A DNA stretch of 64,000 bases from NCBI RefSeq assembly GCF_028867935.1, contig NZ_JAPQNS010000008.1, positions 248,001-312,000 of the forward strand, in the 5' to 3' direction. Shown in pieces: positions 7,445 through 41,534 of this stretch. A program made the position numbers and the translations under genes. Source of the DNA: Flavobacterium sp. SUN052. GTDB lineage: Bacteria > Bacteroidota > Bacteroidia > Flavobacteriales > Flavobacteriaceae. Below the pieces are notes generated by a model. That model was not told where the DNA came from. It searched no databases and saw only the letters and a program-made list of their open reading frames with translations. Numbering within the stretch: position 1 is the first letter of the stretch; each line of letters starts with the position of its first letter.

Positions 7445-7485
7445 TAAACCCTATCCCTTCCTATCAGGGGTAGGGTTTATTTTGT
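7445..7485 (+). terminator. Rho-independent terminator
   Basis: AAACCCTATCCC pairs with GGGGTAGGGTTT across a nine-base loop and is followed by ATTTTG. It closes the small lipoprotein gene and separates it from the CHAT gene. Confidence 0.7.
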
Positions 7486-7522
7486 AGGTTTGATTCTTCT
7501 AAACCTATATGTAAAGAATACC

Positions 7523-10339
7523 ATGAAGCGACTCATTCTCTGGCTTGTCATGGTGAGCAGTTTTAGTCCGTATACACTAGCTCAAGATAAGAGGGTTGTA
7601 AAACGCATTGAGCACTATCTGGAGGTTGCTGATGAGGCCGATGGCAAACTTTCTTTCAAAGAAGCTGCTCAATTCTATAAGAAAGCGATTGATCTGAGTG
7701 ATTCGGCCAGGCTCTCCAATTACTTGATACTAGCCTGTTTAGACGGGGCAAAATCAAAAACCAATGCAGGGTCAACCCGTGAAGCTATCCCACTTGTGCG
7801 ACGGGCCTTTCGCACTTACAAGGTCAACGGCGACCGCTCGGTTCGGCGCCAGTTCATGATTTACCACGGGTTTGCCAGTGCGTACCAAAGTGATTTTCAG
7901 TACGACTCATCCACCTACTATTTTAATCGGTGCGCCCAACTCATAGCTGCCGAACCAGATAGTTTGAATTCATTCAACAGTTACCTGTATAACTATTATT
8001 TAGACCTGTCTTACCAGGCTCAGGAAACGATGAATTACCACGAGTCTGTTACGATGAATCTGGAGGCAATTCGTCGATACAGGCTGCGCTACAAAAAAGA
8101 ACCTGATGGCAATTATAACTCGCTTGCCAAAGCTTATCTCGCCCTCGGCGATTATGTAAAAGCTGATGCGTCCTTTAAACAGGCAATCCGGCAGTACGCA
8201 GACGAGCCACTTTATGTAGCTATCATACAATGTAACCTGACAGAATCATTACTTCAGCAAAACGCCCTAAAGTCGGCTCGCCAGACTCTGAAACAGGCTC
8301 AAAAGGCCTATAAAACCTATTTTCGTCAGACCAAACAACCCGATGCAGATGTTGAACGACGATTGAAACAGAATGAGGCCGGGGTCTTGCTGGCCGAAGG
8401 AAACTTGCCAGCCGCCAAAACTGCCTTTTCAGACCTGCTTGCATTCAGCAAAATTCACTTTAGCAGGCCTTCAGCATTCCGGGTTGATGCTTACTTAAGT
8501 CTTAATAAATTGTATCAGCAGGAGGGTAATACAGATGCCGCCTTACAAGTTCTTAATGCTGCAATCCGCGAAGCGTATGGTGCCCGCGCCAAATCGTGGC
8601 AACAGGCTGCTCTTCCGCGTTCATTGGTTGCTGCGCTAATTCAGAAAGCTACTTTTCTATCAACTACGTCTTTAGACACACAAGCAAAACGGCTGGCTTA
8701 TGCTAAGGCGGCATTGAACGCGTATGAACAAGCTATAGACCTAATTTCTTTACTCCGGCGAGGAGCGTTACTACCCGAATCAAAAGCGTTTTTGGCGCAA
8801 AAGTCAGCTGGTTTATACAGCCCTGCTTTGTCACTTTGCTACGAACTGGCGCAAAATCCTGGCATGGCTTCTATCTTTCAGCAACGGGCTTTTGCTCTGT
8901 TCGATAAGCAACAAAATAGCCTGTTAGCTGACTCTCAACTCGAACAACAACTCGTTCGGCAGTACTTACCAAAACCGCTACAAACGGAATTCCGAGCCTT
9001 GAATCAACGATTGAGCCAACTTCGGCTGGTTCGCGAAGGCAGCTCCAGCTCGACTCTCGATTCTGAAATCAACAAGACGGAAACTAGCCTGATTGGATGG
9101 CAACAGCGGGTTGCAAATCAATTTCCAGAATACGGACGGGCATTCCGCCGATTTTCGCAGTTATCCCTGCTCGAATACCGTCAGCACCTGGCGGCTGGAG
9201 AGATGGTTTTGTGCTACTCCCCTACTCCAACGGGCCTGCTTGTGCTTACCCTTGGCCGGGAAGGCTGTACCTTTCGCAGGATACCCATTGCGCCGGAATC
9301 GCTTAACAAGGCCATTGCCCGCTACCGCACCGAGGTATCCCGCGACCCAGGTATTGTGGGGGCTTATAACAACCAGCCGGCAAGAGCTTTATACAAAATT
9401 TTGTTAACCCCTATCCAGGACAAGCTTCGGGAGGCAACTGCCCTTACGGTAGTGGCTCCACCCAATTGGCAAATTCCATTCGAAGCGCTGGAAAATCAGG
9501 CAGGCCGCGCCCTGATTTTTCAGGCTGATATAGCGTATCAATTCAACCTGTCGAGTCGGTTGTTAACCAACGAAAGTGAGCAACAAGCCAAACACGAAAG
9601 CCTTACGATGGCTCCGTTTGCAGCCGACACGGGTCGAGGGCCATTCCAAATGAAAACCGGTCATTTGCTGCCCCCTCTTCGGGCTTCAGTTCAGGAAGCA
9701 AATTTGTTGGGCGGGTTAAGCTGGGTTGGTCGCAAGGCCAGCAAACATCGTTTTCTGCTCGATGCACCTCAGGCTAAAATCCTGCTTCTGACAACGCACA
9801 CCTACCCTGGTGAACGAGAAACAGCTTTAGTATTCCACCCATCCGGCCGTACCGAATCTGATTATTTGTTATATCCGTCTGAATTTCAACATACTGACCT
9901 TCGCACCGTCGATTTCGCGGCTCTTTCTGCCTGTGCTACCGAAAAAGGTGTTCAACTTCCGGGCGATGGCGTTCATAGTCTAGGACGAGCGGCTGCGTGG
10001 GCCGGTGCCCGGAGTGTAACTTGTTCCTGGTTCCCAATAAATGATGAAGCTCAGGCACTACTAGGGCAGTATTTTTACCCCAAACTCACAAACGGGAAAT
10101 CAATACGGGAGAATCTGCGACAAGCCCGGCTTGACTTTCTGGCCTCGGCAGAAGGACTCCGGTACAGTGGACACCCCTTTTATTGGGCATCGACAGCTCT
10201 CTACGGGGGGCATAACGCCGTTACAACAACCTCATCCTGGCCAAGTCCCTGGCTATTTAGCCTTCTTACCTGTTTGCTGGGGCTTGCTGGCTGGGCTGTT
10301 TTCAGGCAAAAATCTCTTCCCAAAACAAGCGCGTTCTAA
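7523..10339 (+). CDS. TPR repeat protein with C-terminal CHAT (caspase-like) domain
   Basis: The start at ATG 7523 gives a clean signal peptide (MKRLILWLVMV... TLAQ); an upstream frame start at 7490 would hide it. About 450 residues of helical tetratricopeptide repeats follow. Then comes a CHAT domain, a caspase-HetF-type cysteine peptidase fold, with His759 in LLTTHTYPG and Cys804 in LSACATEKG as the likely dyad. A hydrophobic segment near the end (about 898-920) should anchor it. The domain therefore probably faces the periplasm, unlike the cytoplasmic CHAT effectors of defence systems. The gene overlaps the convergent anti-sigma-like gene by 38 bases. Substrate and trigger are unknown. Confidence 0.85.
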   Translation: MKRLILWLVMVSSFSPYTLAQDKRVVKRIEHYLEVADEADGKLSFKEAAQFYKKAIDLSDSARLSNYLILACLDGAKSKTNAGSTREAIPLVRRAFRTYKVNGDRSVRRQFMIYHGFASAYQSDFQYDSSTYYFNRCAQLIAAEPDSLNSFNSYLYNYYLDLSYQAQETMNYHESVTMNLEAIRRYRLRYKKEPDGNYNSLAKAYLALGDYVKADASFKQAIRQYADEPLYVAIIQCNLTESLLQQNALKSARQTLKQAQKAYKTYFRQTKQPDADVERRLKQNEAGVLLAEGNLPAAKTAFSDLLAFSKIHFSRPSAFRVDAYLSLNKLYQQEGNTDAALQVLNAAIREAYGARAKSWQQAALPRSLVAALIQKATFLSTTSLDTQAKRLAYAKAALNAYEQAIDLISLLRRGALLPESKAFLAQKSAGLYSPALSLCYELAQNPGMASIFQQRAFALFDKQQNSLLADSQLEQQLVRQYLPKPLQTEFRALNQRLSQLRLVREGSSSSTLDSEINKTETSLIGWQQRVANQFPEYGRAFRRFSQLSLLEYRQHLAAGEMVLCYSPTPTGLLVLTLGREGCTFRRIPIAPESLNKAIARYRTEVSRDPGIVGAYNNQPARALYKILLTPIQDKLREATALTVVAPPNWQIPFEALENQAGRALIFQADIAYQFNLSSRLLTNESEQQAKHESLTMAPFAADTGRGPFQMKTGHLLPPLRASVQEANLLGGLSWVGRKASKHRFLLDAPQAKILLLTTHTYPGERETALVFHPSGRTESDYLLYPSEFQHTDLRTVDFAALSACATEKGVQLPGDGVHSLGRAAAWAGARSVTCSWFPINDEAQALLGQYFYPKLTNGKSIRENLRQARLDFLASAEGLRYSGHPFYWASTALYGGHNAVTTTSSWPSPWLFSLLTCLLGLAGWAVFRQKSLPKTSAF

Positions 10340-32554: not shown

Positions 32555-33580
32555 TTAAACCGTCTGGGCGTTCGCATACCGCCCTGCTGCCTGCGACAGT
32601 CGTTCGGCAATGCGTTGGCGAAGCGGTTCGGGCGATAATACTTCTATGCCATCCCCAAACGACAACAGATCTTTTTCGAGTTCGTAGTTGTGCTGCACAC
32701 AAAGACATAGCTCAATATCGCCGTTGTCGTGCCGCCGTTCGACCCGCTGGGAGTGGTGAAATGGTTTGGTTTCGATATACGGAGCCTGTTTTGCCTCTAC
32801 CCAAAGGCGCACTGTGCGGGGACGGAGCGTGGGGCTAACCGTAACACCGATAGCATCCCGATAATACGCTTCGGGATCATGGCCGGGGTTGGGGCGATAC
32901 GCAAGATCGGGAGCAGTGGCCAGATCGAGCATCCGGTCGAGGGCCAGGTGGGTGATGGCATCGCGCTGCCCCTGGACACCCACCGCAAACCAGCGATTTC
33001 GAAACTCTTTGAGCCACCAGACATGAAATGGTATCACTTGTTTCTCCTTCGCCGTGAATGACTGATAGGTAATCCAGATGACCTGTTGTTGCACCACTGC
33101 CCGGTAAAGTGGGTCCAGAAAAGCAAGTCCACGCAGGTTCTCGTTTTTTTCAAAGTCGATCACCGCCATACCCTTACCAGATGCCGAAAAAACGTGTGCC
33201 TCCAACTTTTGTACCACACCCGATAAATTCTGAAAATGAGAAAAGCCCTTGAACTGCTTCAAAACATCCACCGCTTCGCTGATTTGGCTCAAATCGTGGC
33301 CTGATAGTGGCCCGTTAGTGATGCTATAAGTTGGGTCGTCGTAGGTGTAAAACTTCTTTTCGATAACCACAATGGGCGCATTGTAGCCCAGCTTATCGCT
33401 CCGCATCATCTGAATATCGGCCTGAATAGTCCGGCGGCTGATTTGAGCAATTCCCTCATACTCGAATAAGGCTTCGGCGACTTTCTCAATCAGCGCATCG
33501 AGCGTCCATTTGCGAAACCGGTTGGTCAGGCAGCTATCGATGGCGCGATAGCGAATCAGGGCGTTTCGGTTAGCGGGCAT
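32555..33580 (-). CDS. WYL domain transcriptional regulator
   Basis: 341 residues with an N-terminal winged-helix region (about 20-75, ISRRTIQADIQMMRSD) and a WYL domain (IWITYQSFTAKEKQVIPFHV, WFAVGVQG). WYL proteins are ligand-sensing dimers that often control phage-defence and nucleic-acid-damage genes. This one is divergent from the Ro/TROVE gene with a 160-base gap that carries an inverted repeat, so it probably regulates the RNA-repair locus and itself. Confidence 0.9.
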   Translation of the reverse strand: MPANRNALIRYRAIDSCLTNRFRKWTLDALIEKVAEALFEYEGIAQISRRTIQADIQMMRSDKLGYNAPIVVIEKKFYTYDDPTYSITNGPLSGHDLSQISEAVDVLKQFKGFSHFQNLSGVVQKLEAHVFSASGKGMAVIDFEKNENLRGLAFLDPLYRAVVQQQVIWITYQSFTAKEKQVIPFHVWWLKEFRNRWFAVGVQGQRDAITHLALDRMLDLATAPDLAYRPNPGHDPEAYYRDAIGVTVSPTLRPRTVRLWVEAKQAPYIETKPFHHSQRVERRHDNGDIELCLCVQHNYELEKDLLSFGDGIEVLSPEPLRQRIAERLSQAAGRYANAQTV

Positions 33581-33739: not shown

Positions 33740-35287
33740 ATGCGATTCAACTCATTCAGCAAAACAGCAACTCTCAACCCTCAGACGGTTAACCATGCCG
33801 GTGCCAAAGCGTATGCGCTCTCGCCCGAAATGGAACTATACTCGGCGGTGGTCACGACCATGCTGACCGATTCGTTCTACGAAAAAGCAGATGAGCGGCT
33901 GACTCGGATTCAGGCGTTGGTTGGACAGGTGAATCCCTTACTTGTGGCCCAGCTGGCCGTGTATGCTCGTGAGCAAATGTACCTTCGCACCGCCCCTATT
34001 GTGCTGATTGGCGAGTTAGCCAAAATTCATAATGGCGATGATCTGGTGAGCCGGACTATTGCCCGCGTGGTTCAGCGCCCCGACGAGATTACGGAGTTGC
34101 TGGCCTACTACCAGAAAACGAACGCTCGCACTGAGGTCAAAAAACTGAACCGGCTCTCGAAACAGGTACAGCGTGGTTTGGCCCTATCGTTCAATCGATT
34201 CGATGCCTATCAGTTTGCCAAATATGATCGGGCCACGGCAGTTCGATTACGCGATGCCTTGTTTTTGGTTCACCCCAAAGCGAAAGACGATGCCCAGCAG
34301 CTTGTTTTTGATCAGCTTACGAACCGAACACTGACTACGCCTTACACCTGGGAAACCGAGTTAAGTGCGTTGGGGCAGCAGTCTTTTCAAACCGAAGCCG
34401 CTAAAAAAATGGCCACTCAGGCGAAATGGCACGAACTGATCGACAGCGGCCGACTCGGATATATGGCTACCTTACGAAACCTGCGCAATATGCTCGAAGC
34501 CGACATCGACATTACCCACCTAAAAACAGTGTGCAAAACATTGGCTGACGAGCGGGCTGTGAGCAAAGCGAAGCAGTTTCCGTTCCGGTTTCTGGCGGCC
34601 TACCGCGAAATGAGTGCTATTGCTACAGAATACCAACGGCAAGTGCAACTCATCAACTACGCTTTGGAAGACGCAGTTCGGATCAGCACCGCCAATCTAC
34701 GAGGGTTCGGTGCCGACACCCGTGTGGTGGTTGCCTGCGACGTGTCGGGGTCGATGCAGAAGCCAGTATCGGCCAAGAGCAAAGTCCTGTTGTACGACAT
34801 CGGTCTGTTGCTGGGAATGCTGTTGAAAACCCGCAGCAAAAACGTGGTAAGCGGTATGTTTGGCGATCGCTGGCAAATCGTTGACTTGCCTACACAGGGC
34901 GTGTTGGCCAACGTCGATGCGTTTTATAAGCGTGAGGGCGAGGTGGGCTATTCGACTAACGGCTATCTGGTTCTGGAAGACTTGATCAAGCGCAAACATG
35001 CAGTTGATAAAGTCATGTTTTTCACCGACGTTCAGTTGTGGGATTCCACAACGAACAACCAGTCTATCAAGAACACGGTACAGACTAAGTGGCTTCAGTA
35101 CAAGCAGTTGTTCCCGAAGGCCAAACTGTATCTGTTCGATTTGGCGGGTCATGGCACCACGCCAATTCAGACAAAAGCGAACGATGTGTTTCTAATCGCG
35201 GGTTGGTCCGACAAAGTTTTCGATGTGCTTCAAGCTATCGAAAACGGCGAGGATTCACTGGCAGACGTGACTAAAATTGTGCTTTGA
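33740..35287 (+). CDS. Ro60/TROVE domain RNA-binding protein
   Basis: ATG 33740 (MRFNSFSKTATLNPQ) gives 515 residues, the usual Ro60/Rsr length; an upstream extension in frame overlaps the leader hairpin and is excluded. Residues 1-320 form the HEAT-repeat TROVE ring that in Ro60 binds Y RNA outside and misfolded RNA ends inside. Residues about 328-510 are a von Willebrand A domain with the MIDAS motif DVSGSMQ starting at Asp334. It is divergent from a WYL regulator and followed by four Y RNA-like modules, an RNA ligase and a polynucleotide kinase. That strongly suggests a Ro ribonucleoprotein in RNA quality control. Confidence 0.93.
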   Translation: MRFNSFSKTATLNPQTVNHAGAKAYALSPEMELYSAVVTTMLTDSFYEKADERLTRIQALVGQVNPLLVAQLAVYAREQMYLRTAPIVLIGELAKIHNGDDLVSRTIARVVQRPDEITELLAYYQKTNARTEVKKLNRLSKQVQRGLALSFNRFDAYQFAKYDRATAVRLRDALFLVHPKAKDDAQQLVFDQLTNRTLTTPYTWETELSALGQQSFQTEAAKKMATQAKWHELIDSGRLGYMATLRNLRNMLEADIDITHLKTVCKTLADERAVSKAKQFPFRFLAAYREMSAIATEYQRQVQLINYALEDAVRISTANLRGFGADTRVVVACDVSGSMQKPVSAKSKVLLYDIGLLLGMLLKTRSKNVVSGMFGDRWQIVDLPTQGVLANVDAFYKREGEVGYSTNGYLVLEDLIKRKHAVDKVMFFTDVQLWDSTTNNQSIKNTVQTKWLQYKQLFPKAKLYLFDLAGHGTTPIQTKANDVFLIAGWSDKVFDVLQAIENGEDSLADVTKIVL

Positions 35288-35334
35288 GGTGCTGTCAGGT
35301 CGCAACGGCGAACCGTTCTAGCCTGACAGCACCT
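35287..35334. terminator. Hairpin after the TROVE gene
   Basis: Thirteen-base arms AGGTGCTGTCAGG and CCTGACAGCACCT start at the TROVE stop codon. They enclose a second small stem (AACGG/CCGTT). It probably marks the 3' end of the TROVE mRNA, eight bases before the first RNA module. Confidence 0.65.
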
Positions 35335-35341
35335 TATGAAA

Positions 35342-35589
35342 ACAGGTGCCGTAGTACAGCGTTATCGCTCCGGCGCCCCGGTTCGCTTCGGACGATGGGG
35401 TCGCGGGTTCGAGTCCCGCCACCGGAACTAAATCATAGCGTTAGTTTGCTTCGGACGATGGGGTCGTGCCGGGGGCGCGTCCGCCTTCGAGTCCCGCCAC
35501 TGGAACGAATTTGATAAATTCCAATATTCCGGTGTAGCTCAGTTGGTTAGAGCACATAATCACGCTGTCCGTTTGTTGCCCTGTTTTTT
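35342..35589 (+). ncRNA. Y RNA-like module A (permuted tRNA mimic, longest)
   Basis: Ends pair as ACAGG (35342-46) with CCTGT (35580-84), followed by a T run. Inside, AGCG-TTAT-CGCT forms a small hairpin. A T-arm follows (GCGGG, loop TTCGAGT, CCCGC at 35403-35419). The acceptor 3' strand CACCGGAA is at 35420-27 and the acceptor 5' strand TTCCGGTG at 35527-34. Then come TA and a D-arm GCTC/GAGC with loop AGTTGGTTA. Thus the tRNA 3' half precedes the 5' half. Between them lies a second, decayed copy of the 3' half (CACTGGAA at 35498-35505), so the module is about 110 bases longer than C or D. Conserved flanks are GGTGCCGTAGTA and CCGTTTGTTGCCCTG. Confidence 0.8.
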
Positions 35590-35599
35590 GTAATTGTTT

Positions 35600-35741
35600 C
35601 GGGATGCCGTAGGAAGGAGTTACTTCGTCGCCAATGAAGGGGGTGGACCAGCGTAGTTCACGAAAATTGAACAGGGCTGCGCCGTTCGAGTCGGCAAGAC
35701 TAAGCCCCCAACTCCAATCCGTTTGTTGCTCCCCAGTTTTT
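35600..35741 (+). ncRNA. Y RNA-like module B (divergent)
   Basis: It shares the flanks of the other modules: GATGCCGTAGGAAGG at the 5' side and TCCGTTTGTTGC at the 3' side, then a T run. The outer stem changes to GGGA/TCCC. A perfect T-loop hairpin GCCG-TTCGAGT-CGGC and a D-like arm GTTC/GAAC are present. Here the D-like arm comes first and GGGGG/CCCCC strands flank both, so the internal order differs from A, C and D. It may have been rearranged. Confidence 0.6.
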
Positions 35742-35877
35742 GCAGGTGCCGTAGGAAAGGGTTCCTTCGTCCTAATCCTGAGGTTGTGGGTATAGAGGCC
35801 CGCCGTTGGGGTAACCCAGCGTAGCTCAATACAGAGCACAGGAAAAAAGTCCCTTTTCGTTTGTTGCCCTGCTTTTT
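35742..35877 (+). ncRNA. Y RNA-like module C (acceptor stem capped by GUAA)
   Basis: Ends pair as GCAGG (35742-46) with CCTGC (35868-72), a covarying version of the outer stem of A and D. A local AAGG/CCTT hairpin follows GCCGTAGG. The tRNA mimic is T-arm GTGGG/CCCGC (35786-35803), acceptor strands CGTTGGG and CCCAGCG closed by the GNRA tetraloop GTAA (35811-14), then TA and D-arm GCTC/GAGC (35824-35837). The closed acceptor end means it cannot be an amino-acid-accepting tRNA. TTTTT follows the 3' end. Confidence 0.8.
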
Positions 35878-35894
35878 AGTTTATATTTCATTAT

Positions 35895-36030
35895 ACAGGT
35901 GCCGTAGTAAAGCGATACTTCGATGCAGTCGCGGGTTCGACTCCCGCCATCAGAATAGGTTTTTATGATTCTGGTGTAGCTCAGTTGGTAGAGCACAAAA
36001 CACGCTGTCCGTTTGTTGCCCTGTTTTTTT
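35895..36030 (+). ncRNA. Y RNA-like module D
   Basis: Ends pair as ACAGG (35895-99) with CCTGT (36020-24), followed by seven T residues. T-arm GCGGG, loop TTCGACT, CCCGC lies at 35931-47. Acceptor strands CATCAGAAT (35948-56) and ATTCTGGTG (35968-76) are joined by an 11-base loop. Then come TA and a D-arm GCTC/GAGC with loop AGTTGGTA (35979-94). The 5' and 3' flanks match module A closely. It ends three bases before the RNA ligase ATG, so RNA processing and ligase expression may be linked. Confidence 0.82.
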
Positions 36031-36033
36031 ACC

Positions 36034-37083
36034 ATGACTACCTTCATTAACACCCTCGCTCCTGCCCTTCGTCAGCATATTGCCGACGGATTTGTGATCG
36101 TTCGGCAGCATCCCACGGCCGAGTTGTATATTCTGAACTACGCGGCCAAAACCCAATACGAACGGGTTTGGGATGAGTACACCCTAGCTTGCCGGGGCCT
36201 GATTCTGAACGGGCAGGGACAGGTGGTAGCTCGCCCGTTTCCAAAGTTCTTCAATCTCGACGAGGTGGTGGTAACAGGCGAAATCCCGGCGCTACCCGAC
36301 GAGCCGTTTGTGGCTTACGAAAAACTCGACGGATCGCTGGGAATTTTGTACTGGATCGACGATACCCCGTTTATTGCAACTCGCGGTTCGTTTATGAGCG
36401 ATCAGGCGCAGTGGGCTACCAACCTGCTCCACACGCGCTATGCCCACGTACTACCCCTACTCGATCGCTCAAAAACGTACTTGTTCGAGATTATTTACCC
36501 CGAAAACCGGATCGTTGTCCATTATGGCGACCGTCAGGATTTGGTGCTTCTGGCTGTAATCGACACCGAGACCGGCGCCGAGTCCATTGACCTTCCCGAT
36601 CTGGGTTTTACCTTGGTGCGCCGGTTCGATGGGTATACCGACATGGATGCCATTCGGGCAGTGCAAATTGATAATGAGGAAGGGTTTGTAATTCGGTTTG
36701 CGTCGGGATTGCGGGTAAAGGTTAAGTTTGCCGAATATGTGCGGCTTCACCGGATTCTAACGCAGGTTTCGACGCGCAACATCTGGGAATATTTAGCGAC
36801 TAACCAGCCGTTCGACCTGATTTTGGACCGAGTTCCCGATGAGTTTTACGACTGGGTGAAGCAGACGTCTAGCGAGTTGATAAGCCGGTATCAGGCCATC
36901 GAATCGGAATGTCGTGAGGTGTTTCGGGTGCATGAATCGCGCAAGGAAACGGCGCTGTATTTTCAAACCCAACGGTATCCAGCCGTGCTGTTTCTGATGC
37001 TCGACAAGCGTGACTATTCGCCAGCCATCTGGAAACTGCTCCGCCCTGCCTATGAGCGGCCCTTTAAAACGGGTCAAGAATAG
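36034..37083 (+). CDS. T4 Rnl1-like RNA ligase
   Basis: ATG 36034 gives 349 residues. Nucleotidyltransferase motifs are in order: motif I KLDGS with the AMP-accepting Lys97, FEIIYPENRIV (motif IIIa), EEGFVIRF (motif IV) and KVKFAEYVRLHR (motif V). This is the T4 RnlA (Rnl1) pattern, whose Lys is residue 99. T4 Rnl1 seals tRNA broken in the anticodon loop after Pnkp has healed the ends, and a Pnkp homologue follows here. ATP-dependent joining of 3'-OH and 5'-phosphate RNA ends is expected. Confidence 0.92.
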   Translation: MTTFINTLAPALRQHIADGFVIVRQHPTAELYILNYAAKTQYERVWDEYTLACRGLILNGQGQVVARPFPKFFNLDEVVVTGEIPALPDEPFVAYEKLDGSLGILYWIDDTPFIATRGSFMSDQAQWATNLLHTRYAHVLPLLDRSKTYLFEIIYPENRIVVHYGDRQDLVLLAVIDTETGAESIDLPDLGFTLVRRFDGYTDMDAIRAVQIDNEEGFVIRFASGLRVKVKFAEYVRLHRILTQVSTRNIWEYLATNQPFDLILDRVPDEFYDWVKQTSSELISRYQAIESECREVFRVHESRKETALYFQTQRYPAVLFLMLDKRDYSPAIWKLLRPAYERPFKTGQE

Positions 37084-40567: not shown

Positions 40568-40578
40568 GAAACTCAACT

Positions 40579-40667
40579 GACCCCACCCCAACCCCTCCCC
40601 GTTAGGGCGGGGCTAAAAATGCTCAAACTTAAGTCCCTCCCTAACCGGGAGGGGTTGGGGTGGGGTC
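40579..40667. repeat. GC-rich REP-like palindrome with CCCCAACCCCTCCC core
   Basis: GACCCCACCCCAACCCCTCC is mirrored by GGAGGGGTTGGGGTGGGGTC, with CCCGTTAGGGCGGGG-type small stems inside. It sits between convergent genes and may end both transcripts. Confidence 0.8.
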
Positions 40668-40670
40668 TCT

Positions 40671-41534
40671 TTACTGCAAATTGGCGTCTTCGTTGCTGTT
40701 GAACGTGTCGCCTTGGTTGATGTCGCCGGTTTTATAGCCTTTTTTGAACCAGTATACCCGTTGAGCTGAGGTGCCGTGCGTGAAACCGTCGGGCACGACG
40801 TAGCCCTGCGTTTCTTTCTGGATTCGGTCGTCTCCGATGGAATTGGCGGCATTGAGCGCTTCCTCAATGTCACCCGCTTCAATCATACCGTTGTTACGCG
40901 CCCATACGCCCGCCAGAAAATCGGCCTGCAACTCCAGACGAACCGACAACTGATTTGCTTCGCGTTTGCCCGCCTGCTGCTGGGCATTATGTACCTTGTC
41001 CATAATACCCAGTTGATCCTGCAAATAGTGGCCTACCTCGTGCGCCACTACGTAGGCCATGGCAAAGTCGCCGGGAGCCTTAAACCGTTCTCGAAGTTCG
41101 TCATAAAACGAGAGATCAATGTATAGTTTTTTGTCACCGGGGCAGTAGAACGGGCCCGAGGCCGCCGAGGCAGTGCCGCATCCCGACTGTGTCCGATCCC
41201 GAAACAGAACCAGGGTTGGTGGACGATATTGCTGCCCCTTTTCAGCCAGAATCTTTGTCCAGACGTCTTCTGTTGATCCTAAAACTACGCGGGTAAACTT
41301 GGCGGCTTCGTCATCGGGCTGTGGCCCATCGGGTGCCTGTGCGCCAGGCATTGTTTGACTTTGATCGGCATCACCGCCCTGATTCATCACCTGCGAGGGG
41401 TCTCCTCCCAACAGAAACACAATTACGGCAATAACAATAGTGCCGATGCCTCCACCGATAGCCAAACCTCCTCCACCGCTGCTTCCCCGGCGATCTTCTA
41501 CATTCTCGCTTTCGCGACCTCCCAGCCAACGCAT
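40671..41534 (-). CDS. YpfJ-like neutral zinc metallopeptidase
   Basis: A short cytoplasmic N-terminus, a membrane segment (about 25-45), a Gln/Asp-rich linker, then a peptidase domain with HEVGH (in VVAHEVGHYLQDQLG). The downstream RLELQADFLAGVWA holds the third ligand, and SAQRVYWFKKGY stands near the end. This fits the YpfJ/KPN_02809 family. The substrate is unknown. 287 residues is normal. Confidence 0.9.
   Translation of the reverse strand: MRWLGGRESENVEDRRGSSGGGGLAIGGGIGTIVIAVIVFLLGGDPSQVMNQGGDADQSQTMPGAQAPDGPQPDDEAAKFTRVVLGSTEDVWTKILAEKGQQYRPPTLVLFRDRTQSGCGTASAASGPFYCPGDKKLYIDLSFYDELRERFKAPGDFAMAYVVAHEVGHYLQDQLGIMDKVHNAQQQAGKREANQLSVRLELQADFLAGVWARNNGMIEAGDIEEALNAANSIGDDRIQKETQGYVVPDGFTHGTSAQRVYWFKKGYKTGDINQGDTFNSNEDANLQ

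What the first reader, a model, noticed from the sequence alone, without database searches (positions are those of the whole stretch)
35342..36030. Four tandem Y RNA-like modules with circularly permuted tRNA mimics between the Ro60 homologue and an RNA ligase
Seen directly: four units of 136-248 bases share GRTGCCGTAG at the 5' side and CGTTTGTTGC followed by a T run at the 3' side. Their ends pair and covary (ACAGG/CCTGT in A and D, GCAGG/CCTGC in C, GGGA/TCCC in B). Units A, C and D hold a tRNA 3' half (T-arm, acceptor strand) placed before a tRNA 5' half (acceptor strand, TA, D-arm GCTC/GAGC). Known: bacterial YrlA RNAs bind Ro proteins and mimic tRNA in this permuted way. A four-copy array wedged between TROVE and T4-type RNA repair genes is not something I know as described.
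Basis: partly seen in the sequence, partly recalled or inferred. Interest (0 to 1): 0.95.

Follow-up and report, generated by a model that had tools for sequence, protein, structure and literature searches.

The report
Y RNA array beside Ro60
Next to a bacterial relative of the human Ro60 protein lies a row of four small RNA genes, three of them built like tRNAs with their halves swapped, and such rows turn out to be the usual arrangement at the Ro60 loci sampled from this bacterial phylum, commonly close to RNA-repair genes.

Summary
Covariance models built only from other genomes recover the four units: A, C and D as YrlA-type Y RNAs with a permuted tRNA domain (E 1.7e-19, 1.1e-20, 4.8e-26) and B as a second type resembling the Deinococcus Y RNA (E 3.8e-11). 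In the training alignment 30 of 35 pairs show two-sided changes. The locus is WYL regulator / Ro (TROVE) / four Y RNAs / T4-type RNA ligase / Pnkp. In a phylum sample, 25 of 27 other TROVE loci have at least two unit matches and 20 of 27 an RNA-repair gene nearby. No Y RNA reached the Rfam gathering score in any stretch scanned. The most surprising lead lies outside the window: in six Aquimarina/Dokdonia arrays the first Y RNA carries a copy of the helix-69/70 stretch of 23S rRNA, 27 of 27 bases in five and 24 of 25 in one. Expression, Ro binding and function are untested.

The parts
32555..33580 (-). WYL-domain transcription regulator, divergent from the TROVE gene
   Evidence: Pfam WCX 1.7e-16 and WYL 8.1e-10; PADLOC WYL 7.7e-26; a tblastn homologue in 13 of 25 loci of the similarity set and 12 of 27 phylum-sample loci
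33740..35287 (+). Ro60 homologue: TROVE domain plus vWA domain with DVSGS metal-site motif
   Evidence: PF05731 E 2.6e-28; solved TROVE proteins 9l5y and 9kop at 94.8 bits; motif read from the translation
35288..35333 (+). hairpin between the TROVE stop codon and unit A, possibly a processing site (inferred)
   Evidence: GGTGCTGTCAGG...CCTGACAGCACC, -31.9 kcal/mol for 35288-35341
35338..35588 (+). Y RNA unit A, YrlA type with permuted tRNA domain; enlarged by an internal duplication and GC-rich insertions
   Evidence: model R1 78.1 bits, E 1.7e-19; duplication, self-match E 7.8e-9
35596..35741 (+). Y RNA unit B, second type: basal Ro stem, GGGGG/CCCCC region and a T-arm-like hairpin, not permuted
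   Evidence: model R2 50.3 bits, E 3.8e-11; conserved in Fibrella forsythiae L023:6541-6683
35738..35876 (+). Y RNA unit C, YrlA type; permuted T-arm, acceptor and D-arm stems kept, elbow loop bases lost
   Evidence: model R1 82.4 bits, E 1.1e-20; homologues in L023 and L019
35891..36028 (+). Y RNA unit D, YrlA type with complete permuted tRNA domain
   Evidence: model R1 102.1 bits, E 4.8e-26; Rfam YrlA 35.0 bits; strict permuted-tRNA hit
36034..37083 (+). T4 Rnl1-type RNA ligase; motif KLDGS present; 5 bases lie between the end of unit D and its start codon
   Evidence: PF09511 E 2.4e-17; 79% and 77% identical homologues after the Fibrella arrays L019 and L023
37152..38132 (+). T4 Pnkp-type polynucleotide kinase (P-loop GISGSGKST) and 3'-phosphatase (DIDGT)
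   Evidence: HAD_PNKP E 5.4e-53 and AAA_33 E 2.1e-16; homologues at 75% and 72% in L019 and L023

Best explanation
The region encodes an array of four Y RNAs for the adjacent Ro protein, most likely made as one precursor with the ro, ligase and kinase genes and then cut into single RNAs. Each RNA closes into a basal stem whose single-base bulge and conserved GYCGUA / UUNUUGCC element is the likely Ro-binding site. What the stem carries differs. Unit B carries a T-arm-like hairpin like the Deinococcus Y RNA and would tether Ro to PNPase. Units A and D, and in stem form C, carry a permuted tRNA elbow closed at the acceptor end, which would occupy or recruit tRNA-handling proteins and gate the Ro ring. 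Induced through the WYL regulator under RNA damage, Ro with its Y RNAs would sort damaged tRNA and rRNA between decay (Ro/PNPase) and re-ligation (Pnkp heals the ends, the Rnl1-type ligase seals). Shown here: anatomy, conservation, covariation, gene order. Inferred: transcription, processing, binding, damage response, division of labour.
For: Units found by models that contain no window sequence. 30 of 35 pairs of YrlA-type units and 16 of 28 of B-type units with at least one two-sided change. Perfect P1 plus P2 pairing in 64 of 92 units against 8.6% of swapped strands. The 5' core occurs 92 times after TROVE in 23 of 25 loci and twice in 596 kb of background. Gaps of -4 to 14 bases between window units leave little room for separate promoters. 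Three relatives of B match Rfam Deinococcus_Y_RNA (38.8-41.6 bits); of that RNA, PMC6181284 (passages read) says that two hairpins, one like a T-arm, bind PNPase. All 17 aligned YrlA-type units have the elbow bases yet 17 different acceptor strands. RNA-repair gene in 20 of 27 phylum-sample TROVE stretches.
Against: No RNA-seq, Northern or binding data. No unit reaches the Rfam gathering score. B itself has no Rfam Deinococcus_Y_RNA hit even at E 10, and 3 of the 6 loci scanned gave none at E 0.1. Folding energies of A, B and D are ordinary. In the pairing script only C of the window scored perfectly; for B and D it picked wrong 3' sites with 10 and 9 of 11 pairs. C has lost T-loop and D-loop consensus bases. 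In the whole-genome search A and B score only about 30 bits, below a chance join of two tRNA genes at 43.1. The association with repair genes was counted without a random-gene control. The Rnl1/Pnkp pairing is a minority variant.
Confidence: 0.6

Rival explanations
1. Cis-acting RNA: the units, above all D, control expression of the ligase and kinase from the same transcript, for example by folding over the ligase start region or by serving as processing sites, rather than acting as free Ro-bound RNAs.
For: Only 5 bases separate unit D from the ligase start codon, and the array sits inside what looks like one operon.
Against: In the related loci the gene after the array differs from locus to locus, and in both Fibrella loci the ligase starts about 70 bases after the last unit. 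The conserved features are those of trans-acting Y RNAs. In the viral-contig loci L107 and L108 and in L026 units lie before TROVE.
Confidence: 0.12
2. Decoys or competitive inhibitors for tRNA-cleaving toxins or phage anticodon nucleases, with Ro serving only to stabilise them; the linked ligase and kinase mend the real tRNAs.
For: Linked repair enzymes; clusters of ordinary tRNA genes near several arrays (L004, L020, L022; L131, L138). The Salmonella authors offer the decoy idea for YrlA (PMC7790460, passages read).
Against: The permuted mimic has no anticodon arm, the usual target. The acceptor strands of A, C and D begin none of the 37 host tRNAs and their arm pieces match at best 19/24 or 22/25, so no particular tRNA is copied. 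PMC7790460 (passages) detected no YrlA fragments and concludes that it is not a substrate of the nuclease there.
Confidence: 0.17
3. Remnants of tRNA genes or a tRNA-derived repeat with no function of its own.
For: Unit A is duplicated and partly degenerate.
Against: Two-sided covariation in basal stem, T, acceptor and D stems across genera; R1's only full-length matches at E 1e-3 or better in the 8.1-Mb genome are the four units (the next full-length one, E 0.016, was not examined); regular position beside TROVE.
Confidence: 0.03

Closest known systems
YrlA-type bacterial Y RNA (Rfam RF02553; Salmonella rsr-yrlBA-rtcBA operon)
   Same: Beside Ro, basal stem from both ends, permuted tRNA domain, linked RNA-repair genes (PMC7790460 and PMC8394870, passages read; consensus seen)
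   Different: Four units instead of two; below Rfam's gathering score; core GYCGUA...UUACUUCG in place of CGAAUG...CUA; WYL regulator instead of RtcR; T4-type Rnl1 plus Pnkp instead of RtcB plus RtcA
Deinococcus radiodurans Y RNA (Rfam RF01053)
   Same: Unit B and its relatives share the basal stem, the UUACUUC segment and a T-arm-like hairpin; relatives L093, L095 and L096 match at 38.8-41.6 bits
   Different: Below the gathering score of 80; unit B itself gives no Rfam hit; its first hairpin is irregular
Phage T4 Pnkp / Rnl1 tRNA repair
   Same: Same two enzyme families with catalytic motifs, side by side; the T4 pathway itself is recalled
   Different: Chromosomal, and joined to Ro and Y RNAs; no anticodon nuclease among the six proteins of the neighbourhood scanned

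Membership tests
YrlA-type bacterial Y RNA (units A, C, D) | Encoded beside a Ro60/TROVE gene | tested here: met
   PF05731 E 2.6e-28, its stop codon about 50 bases upstream of unit A
YrlA-type bacterial Y RNA (units A, C, D) | Ends pair in a basal stem with a conserved bulged Ro-binding element | tested here: met
   P1, single bulged base, two core pairs (17 GC; 11 CG and 6 UA in the 17 training units), P2
YrlA-type bacterial Y RNA (units A, C, D) | Permuted tRNA domain: T-arm, acceptor strands, D-arm | tested here: met
   D by strict finder; A and C by model R1. C has the stems but not the elbow loop bases
YrlA-type bacterial Y RNA (units A, C, D) | Reaches Rfam RF02553 gathering score (69 bits) | tested here: not met
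   D 35.0, C 21.1 bits, A no YrlA hit
YrlA-type bacterial Y RNA (units A, C, D) | Bound by Ro and modified by TruB/Dus enzymes | not testable with these tools
   Needs pull-down and modification mapping
Deinococcus-type Y RNA (unit B) | Basal Ro stem plus two hairpins, one T-arm-like | tested here: inconclusive
   Stem and T-arm hairpin GCCG TTCGAGT CGGC present, model R2 50.3 bits; the first hairpin is irregular in B
Deinococcus-type Y RNA (unit B) | Match to Rfam RF01053 | tested here: not met
   No hit for B at E up to 10; relatives of B in L093, L095 and L096 hit below gathering
T4-type RNA repair | Rnl1-family ligase and kinase-phosphatase with intact motifs | tested here: met
   PF09511, AAA_33 and HAD_PNKP; KLDGS, GSGKST, DIDGT read from translations. 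Activity not tested
rsr-yrl-rtcBA operon | RtcB/RtcA ligase-cyclase with RtcR regulator | tested here: not met
   The adjacent genes are WYL, Rnl1 and Pnkp

The most novel reading that the evidence does not exclude
Bacteroidota Ro loci encode a modular display library: one conserved Ro handle repeated head to tail, carrying a Deinococcus-like PNPase tether and several baits that mimic different parts of the translation machinery, namely tRNA elbows with private acceptor stems and, in Aquimarina and Dokdonia, the helix-69/70 stretch of 23S rRNA. Ro would thereby be matched to several classes of damaged RNA or of RNA-handling enzymes at once.
Probability: 0.35. Interest if true: 0.85.

Novelty: new variant of a known kind. 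Interest (0 to 1): 0.64.

Why it matters
Work on bacterial Y RNAs rests on very few species (PMC7790460, passages, names D. radiodurans as the only one with studied function), with one or two Y RNAs each as far as I recall. The loci here show that tandem arrays of diverged Y RNAs beside Ro are the rule in the Bacteroidota loci sampled, that no Y RNA in the stretches scanned reached Rfam's curated score, and that the handle is constant while the displayed domain changes. That gives direct, testable comparisons: which RNA pairs Ro with PNPase, which with repair enzymes, and whether a Y RNA can mimic rRNA as well as tRNA. The window's own case joins Ro and Y RNAs to a T4-type healing and sealing pair, so Ro could be tested in repair and not only in decay.

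Tried and rejected
Minimum free energy as proof: rejected, since A, B and D do not clearly beat shuffles. Rfam at gathering score: no Y RNA hit in the eight loci scanned that way, and all Y RNA matches lie below gathering (best 62.8 of 69, L102). The idea that each mimic copies a particular host tRNA: best matches 19/24, 22/26, 18/24, 22/25, 14/25 and 14/23 to 37 host tRNAs. A possible extra unit elsewhere in the genome (C34:304965): read, no 5' core seen, and R1 does not list it. R1 hits elsewhere in the genome: the best one (43.1 bits) lies across two adjacent tRNA-Lys genes; eight others overlap tRNA genes; three weak ones (C12 twice, C23:249527) were not examined. Model R2 was not run over the whole genome. 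Other rRNA mimicry in the arrays: apart from the helix-69/70 match only weak matches to E. coli rRNA, E 0.009 or worse. Extended 23S homology beyond 27-30 bases in the Aquimarina/Dokdonia unit: only weak, scattered matches. ARAGORN calls inside Y units (L005, L006:6945, L007:3807) were discounted as artefacts. PADLOC: only the WYL regulator matches among four proteins. 16S was not found in the own genome.

Full report
1. What is in the window. Between the stop codon of a TROVE (Ro60) gene (33740-35287) and the start of an RNA ligase gene (36034) lie four units in tandem. Pfam names the neighbours: TROVE E 2.6e-28 with weaker Ro60 vWA hits, RNA_lig_T4_1 E 2.4e-17, kinase AAA_33 plus HAD_PNKP E 5.4e-53, and a divergent WYL regulator. 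The catalytic motifs KLDGS (ligase), GSGKST and DIDGT (kinase-phosphatase) and the DVSGS metal site of Ro are visible in the translations. ARAGORN finds no tRNA in the window.

2. Is the array more than chance? Single-sequence folding does not settle it: z-scores are -0.59 (A), -1.07 (B), -3.26 (C) and -1.09 (D). Comparison does. A protein scan brought 24 related TROVE loci from named records, several of them metagenome bins. A pattern for the 5' core occurs 92 times in the stretches after TROVE in 23 of 25 loci (window included) and twice in 596 kb of remaining sequence and opposite strands. For those 92 units the variable outer (P1) and inner (P2) helices pair perfectly in 64, against 8.6% when strands are swapped between loci; mean scores are 0.96 and 0.85, because the search takes the best site. 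In that script only C of the window is perfect; for B and D it chose wrong 3' sites, and A is not caught by the pattern because its core is interrupted.

3. Two kinds of unit. I aligned 17 YrlA-type units from 13 loci, leaving out the window and Fibrella. RNAalifold finds P1, a single bulged base, two core pairs, P2, T stem, acceptor stem and D stem: 35 pairs, 30 with at least one two-sided change. The model R1 finds D (102.1 bits, 4.8e-26), C (82.4, 1.1e-20) and A (78.1, 1.7e-19) in the window; the next hit has E 0.29. A second model, R2, from 10 first units of other arrays (16 of 28 pairs with two-sided changes) finds B (50.3 bits, 3.8e-11) and, weakly, D (30.9 bits). Three of those ten units (L093, L095, L096, close to one another) match Rfam Deinococcus_Y_RNA at 38.8-41.6 bits (gathering 80). 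The Deinococcus consensus itself contains GGUUACUUC and a T-arm hairpin. Over 56 loci R2 at 55 bits or more occurs in 22, once in 21 of them and twice in L009 (my count; ten of the 22 were training loci, and the window's B falls just below that cut). So an array typically has one tether-like unit, when it has any.

4. State of each window unit. D is complete. A carries an internal duplication (self-match E 7.8e-9) and GC-rich insertions, yet keeps stem and acceptor pairing; in the whole-genome search it scores only 30.3 bits over a shorter span. C has homologues in both Fibrella loci with compensating stems, but its T loop reads TATAGAG and its D loop lacks GG, so the elbow contacts of a real tRNA are not expected. 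B is conserved in F. forsythiae. All 17 units of the YrlA-type alignment have TTCRA (most were picked, which required it) and GG in the D loop (not required), with 17 different acceptor strands. The acceptor strands of A, C and D begin none of 37 host tRNAs, and their arm pieces match at best 19/24, 22/26 or 22/25. So the elbow, not the identity of a tRNA, appears to be what is displayed.

5. How general is it? R1 and R2 together give 107 units in the 25-locus set (24 loci with at least one, 21 with at least two; matches to the tRNA domain alone, R1 matches above E 4e-4 and R2 matches above E 1e-4 were left out; two units lie about 3 kb from the array). This set was chosen by similarity to the window's protein. 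In an independent sample of 395 Bacteroidota genomes 28 have TROVE, one of them the window's own. With about 6 kb on either side where contigs allow, R1 finds matches at E 1e-3 or better in 25 of the 27 others, at least two in each of the 25, and at least two full-length ones in 24. The two without are L139, whose shorter stretch L099 gave one weak match of E 0.0044, and L143, which is the locus L103, in which I read classic YrlA-type cores by eye. A repair gene lies in 20 of the 27 stretches: RtcB 17, RlaP 1, Rnl1 with Pnkp 1, another RNA ligase 1; WYL in 12. Ten of these repair proteins, mostly the weakest, were checked with Pfam and all ten confirmed. No control with random genes was run; that a gene present about once per genome should lie so near by chance is unlikely, but this is inference. 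The Rnl1/Pnkp pair was seen only in the window, two Fibrella loci and L125. Clusters of ordinary tRNA genes lie near several arrays: L004 17, L020 7, L022 3, L131 6, L138 3. Four viral-contig loci also carry units.

6. A unit that mimics rRNA. In six loci (four Aquimarina, two Dokdonia) the first unit has a span of about 190 bases between its P2 strands. In it CGTAACTATAACGGTCCTAAGGTAGCG matches 23S rRNA positions 1903-1929 of E. coli with 27 of 27 bases in five loci and 24 of 25 in L017; the name helix 69/70 is recalled. The 23S contigs of the two hosts looked at have the same sequence. In the alignment of the six units 8 of 64 predicted pairs have two-sided changes, three of them in P2; P1 is invariant. 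Outside the 27-30 bases no convincing rRNA homology was found. The junction pattern occurs in 4 of 66 and 2 of 18 held genomes of the two genera, by position the same six loci, and in 1 of 397 genomes drawn from the family, that one being G300 itself. Folding is ambiguous: RNAalifold prefers another pairing for this segment. In L017 one change would turn a G-U into an A-U pair of a helix-69-like stem, and the other breaks a pair of the alternative fold; this fits mimicry but proves little. Ro of Deinococcus acts in rRNA maturation and decay (PMC4726728 and PMC6181284, passages read), which makes the mimicry plausible.

7. How it would work. Gaps of -4 to 14 bases between window units argue for one precursor cut into pieces. 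Ro would hold each RNA by the bulged stem. By analogy with Deinococcus, B would hold PNPase, since PMC6181284 (passages read) says that two hairpins, one like a T-arm, bind its KH and S1 domains. A and D would present a tRNA elbow; PMC8394870 (passages read) reports TruB and DusA acting on YrlA. The Pnkp and Rnl1-type enzymes would heal and seal broken tRNAs. All these steps are inferred.

8. Known or new. Bacterial Y RNAs near Ro with tRNA-like domains are known. Chen et al. 2014 (PMC4201824) is not held; I recall its abstract saying that likely Y RNAs lie near Ro60 in more than 250 species and that at least one per species has a tRNA-like domain, so more than one per locus was expected. In the listings of nine searches and the passages read I saw no description of long arrays, of Rnl1/Pnkp beside Y RNAs, or of rRNA mimicry by a Y RNA. 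The key reviews and Burroughs and Aravind 2016 are not held, so this absence is weak. I file it as a new variant of a known kind.

9. Caution on the host. The tool's kinship table seems to put the window's genome in the same family as Aquimarina (the genome-size lists agree), while its locus proteins are nearest Fibrella: ligase, kinase and WYL 72-79% to both species, TROVE 71% to F. forsythiae but only 52% to F. aquatilis. TROVE of its five supposed genus mates is 58-60% identical. Statements about the own family (2 of 299) should therefore not be used.

Noticed in passing
L013:6597-6822, L014:2731-2952, L015:6622-6849, L017:6588-6814, L018:6585-6806, L024:6754-6981: First Y RNA unit carries a copy of the helix-69/70 stretch of 23S rRNA (27/27 bases in five loci, 24/25 in L017).
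   Followed up: partly
L004:2515-3728 and 7475-9451; L020:3939-4746; L022:3826-4053; L131:4326-5160: Clusters of divergent ordinary tRNA genes beside or mixed with Y RNA units; in L022 one has a CTA anticodon.
   Followed up: partly
L102:2317-3138, L103, L104: Tandem units with the classic YrlA core (GAATGC...ACTACATG...CTCGTCGCC) in distant Bacteroidota loci, seen by eye; Rfam hits up to 62.8 bits in L102.
   Followed up: partly
window 40573-40673: Long GC-rich inverted repeat between a GNAT-like gene and a converging gene; it draws several spurious microRNA matches in Rfam.
   Followed up: no
window 35288-35333: Strong hairpin without a T run between the TROVE stop and unit A, possibly a processing site.
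   Followed up: no
window 36029-36034: Only 5 bases lie between unit D and the ligase start codon, so cutting out D would leave a nearly leaderless mRNA.
   Followed up: no
L107:4569-4916, L108:4785-4994, L110:62-623, L026:4825-4963: Viral or proviral contigs with Y RNA units; in L107 and L108, and in the alphaproteobacterial locus L026, the units lie before the TROVE gene.
   Followed up: partly
L019: Fibrella aquatilis has a TROVE protein only 52% identical to the window's although its ligase is 79% identical, as if ro had been exchanged within the locus.
   Followed up: no
G000 (own genome): Kinship labels of the genome tool do not fit the protein similarities of the window.
   Followed up: partly
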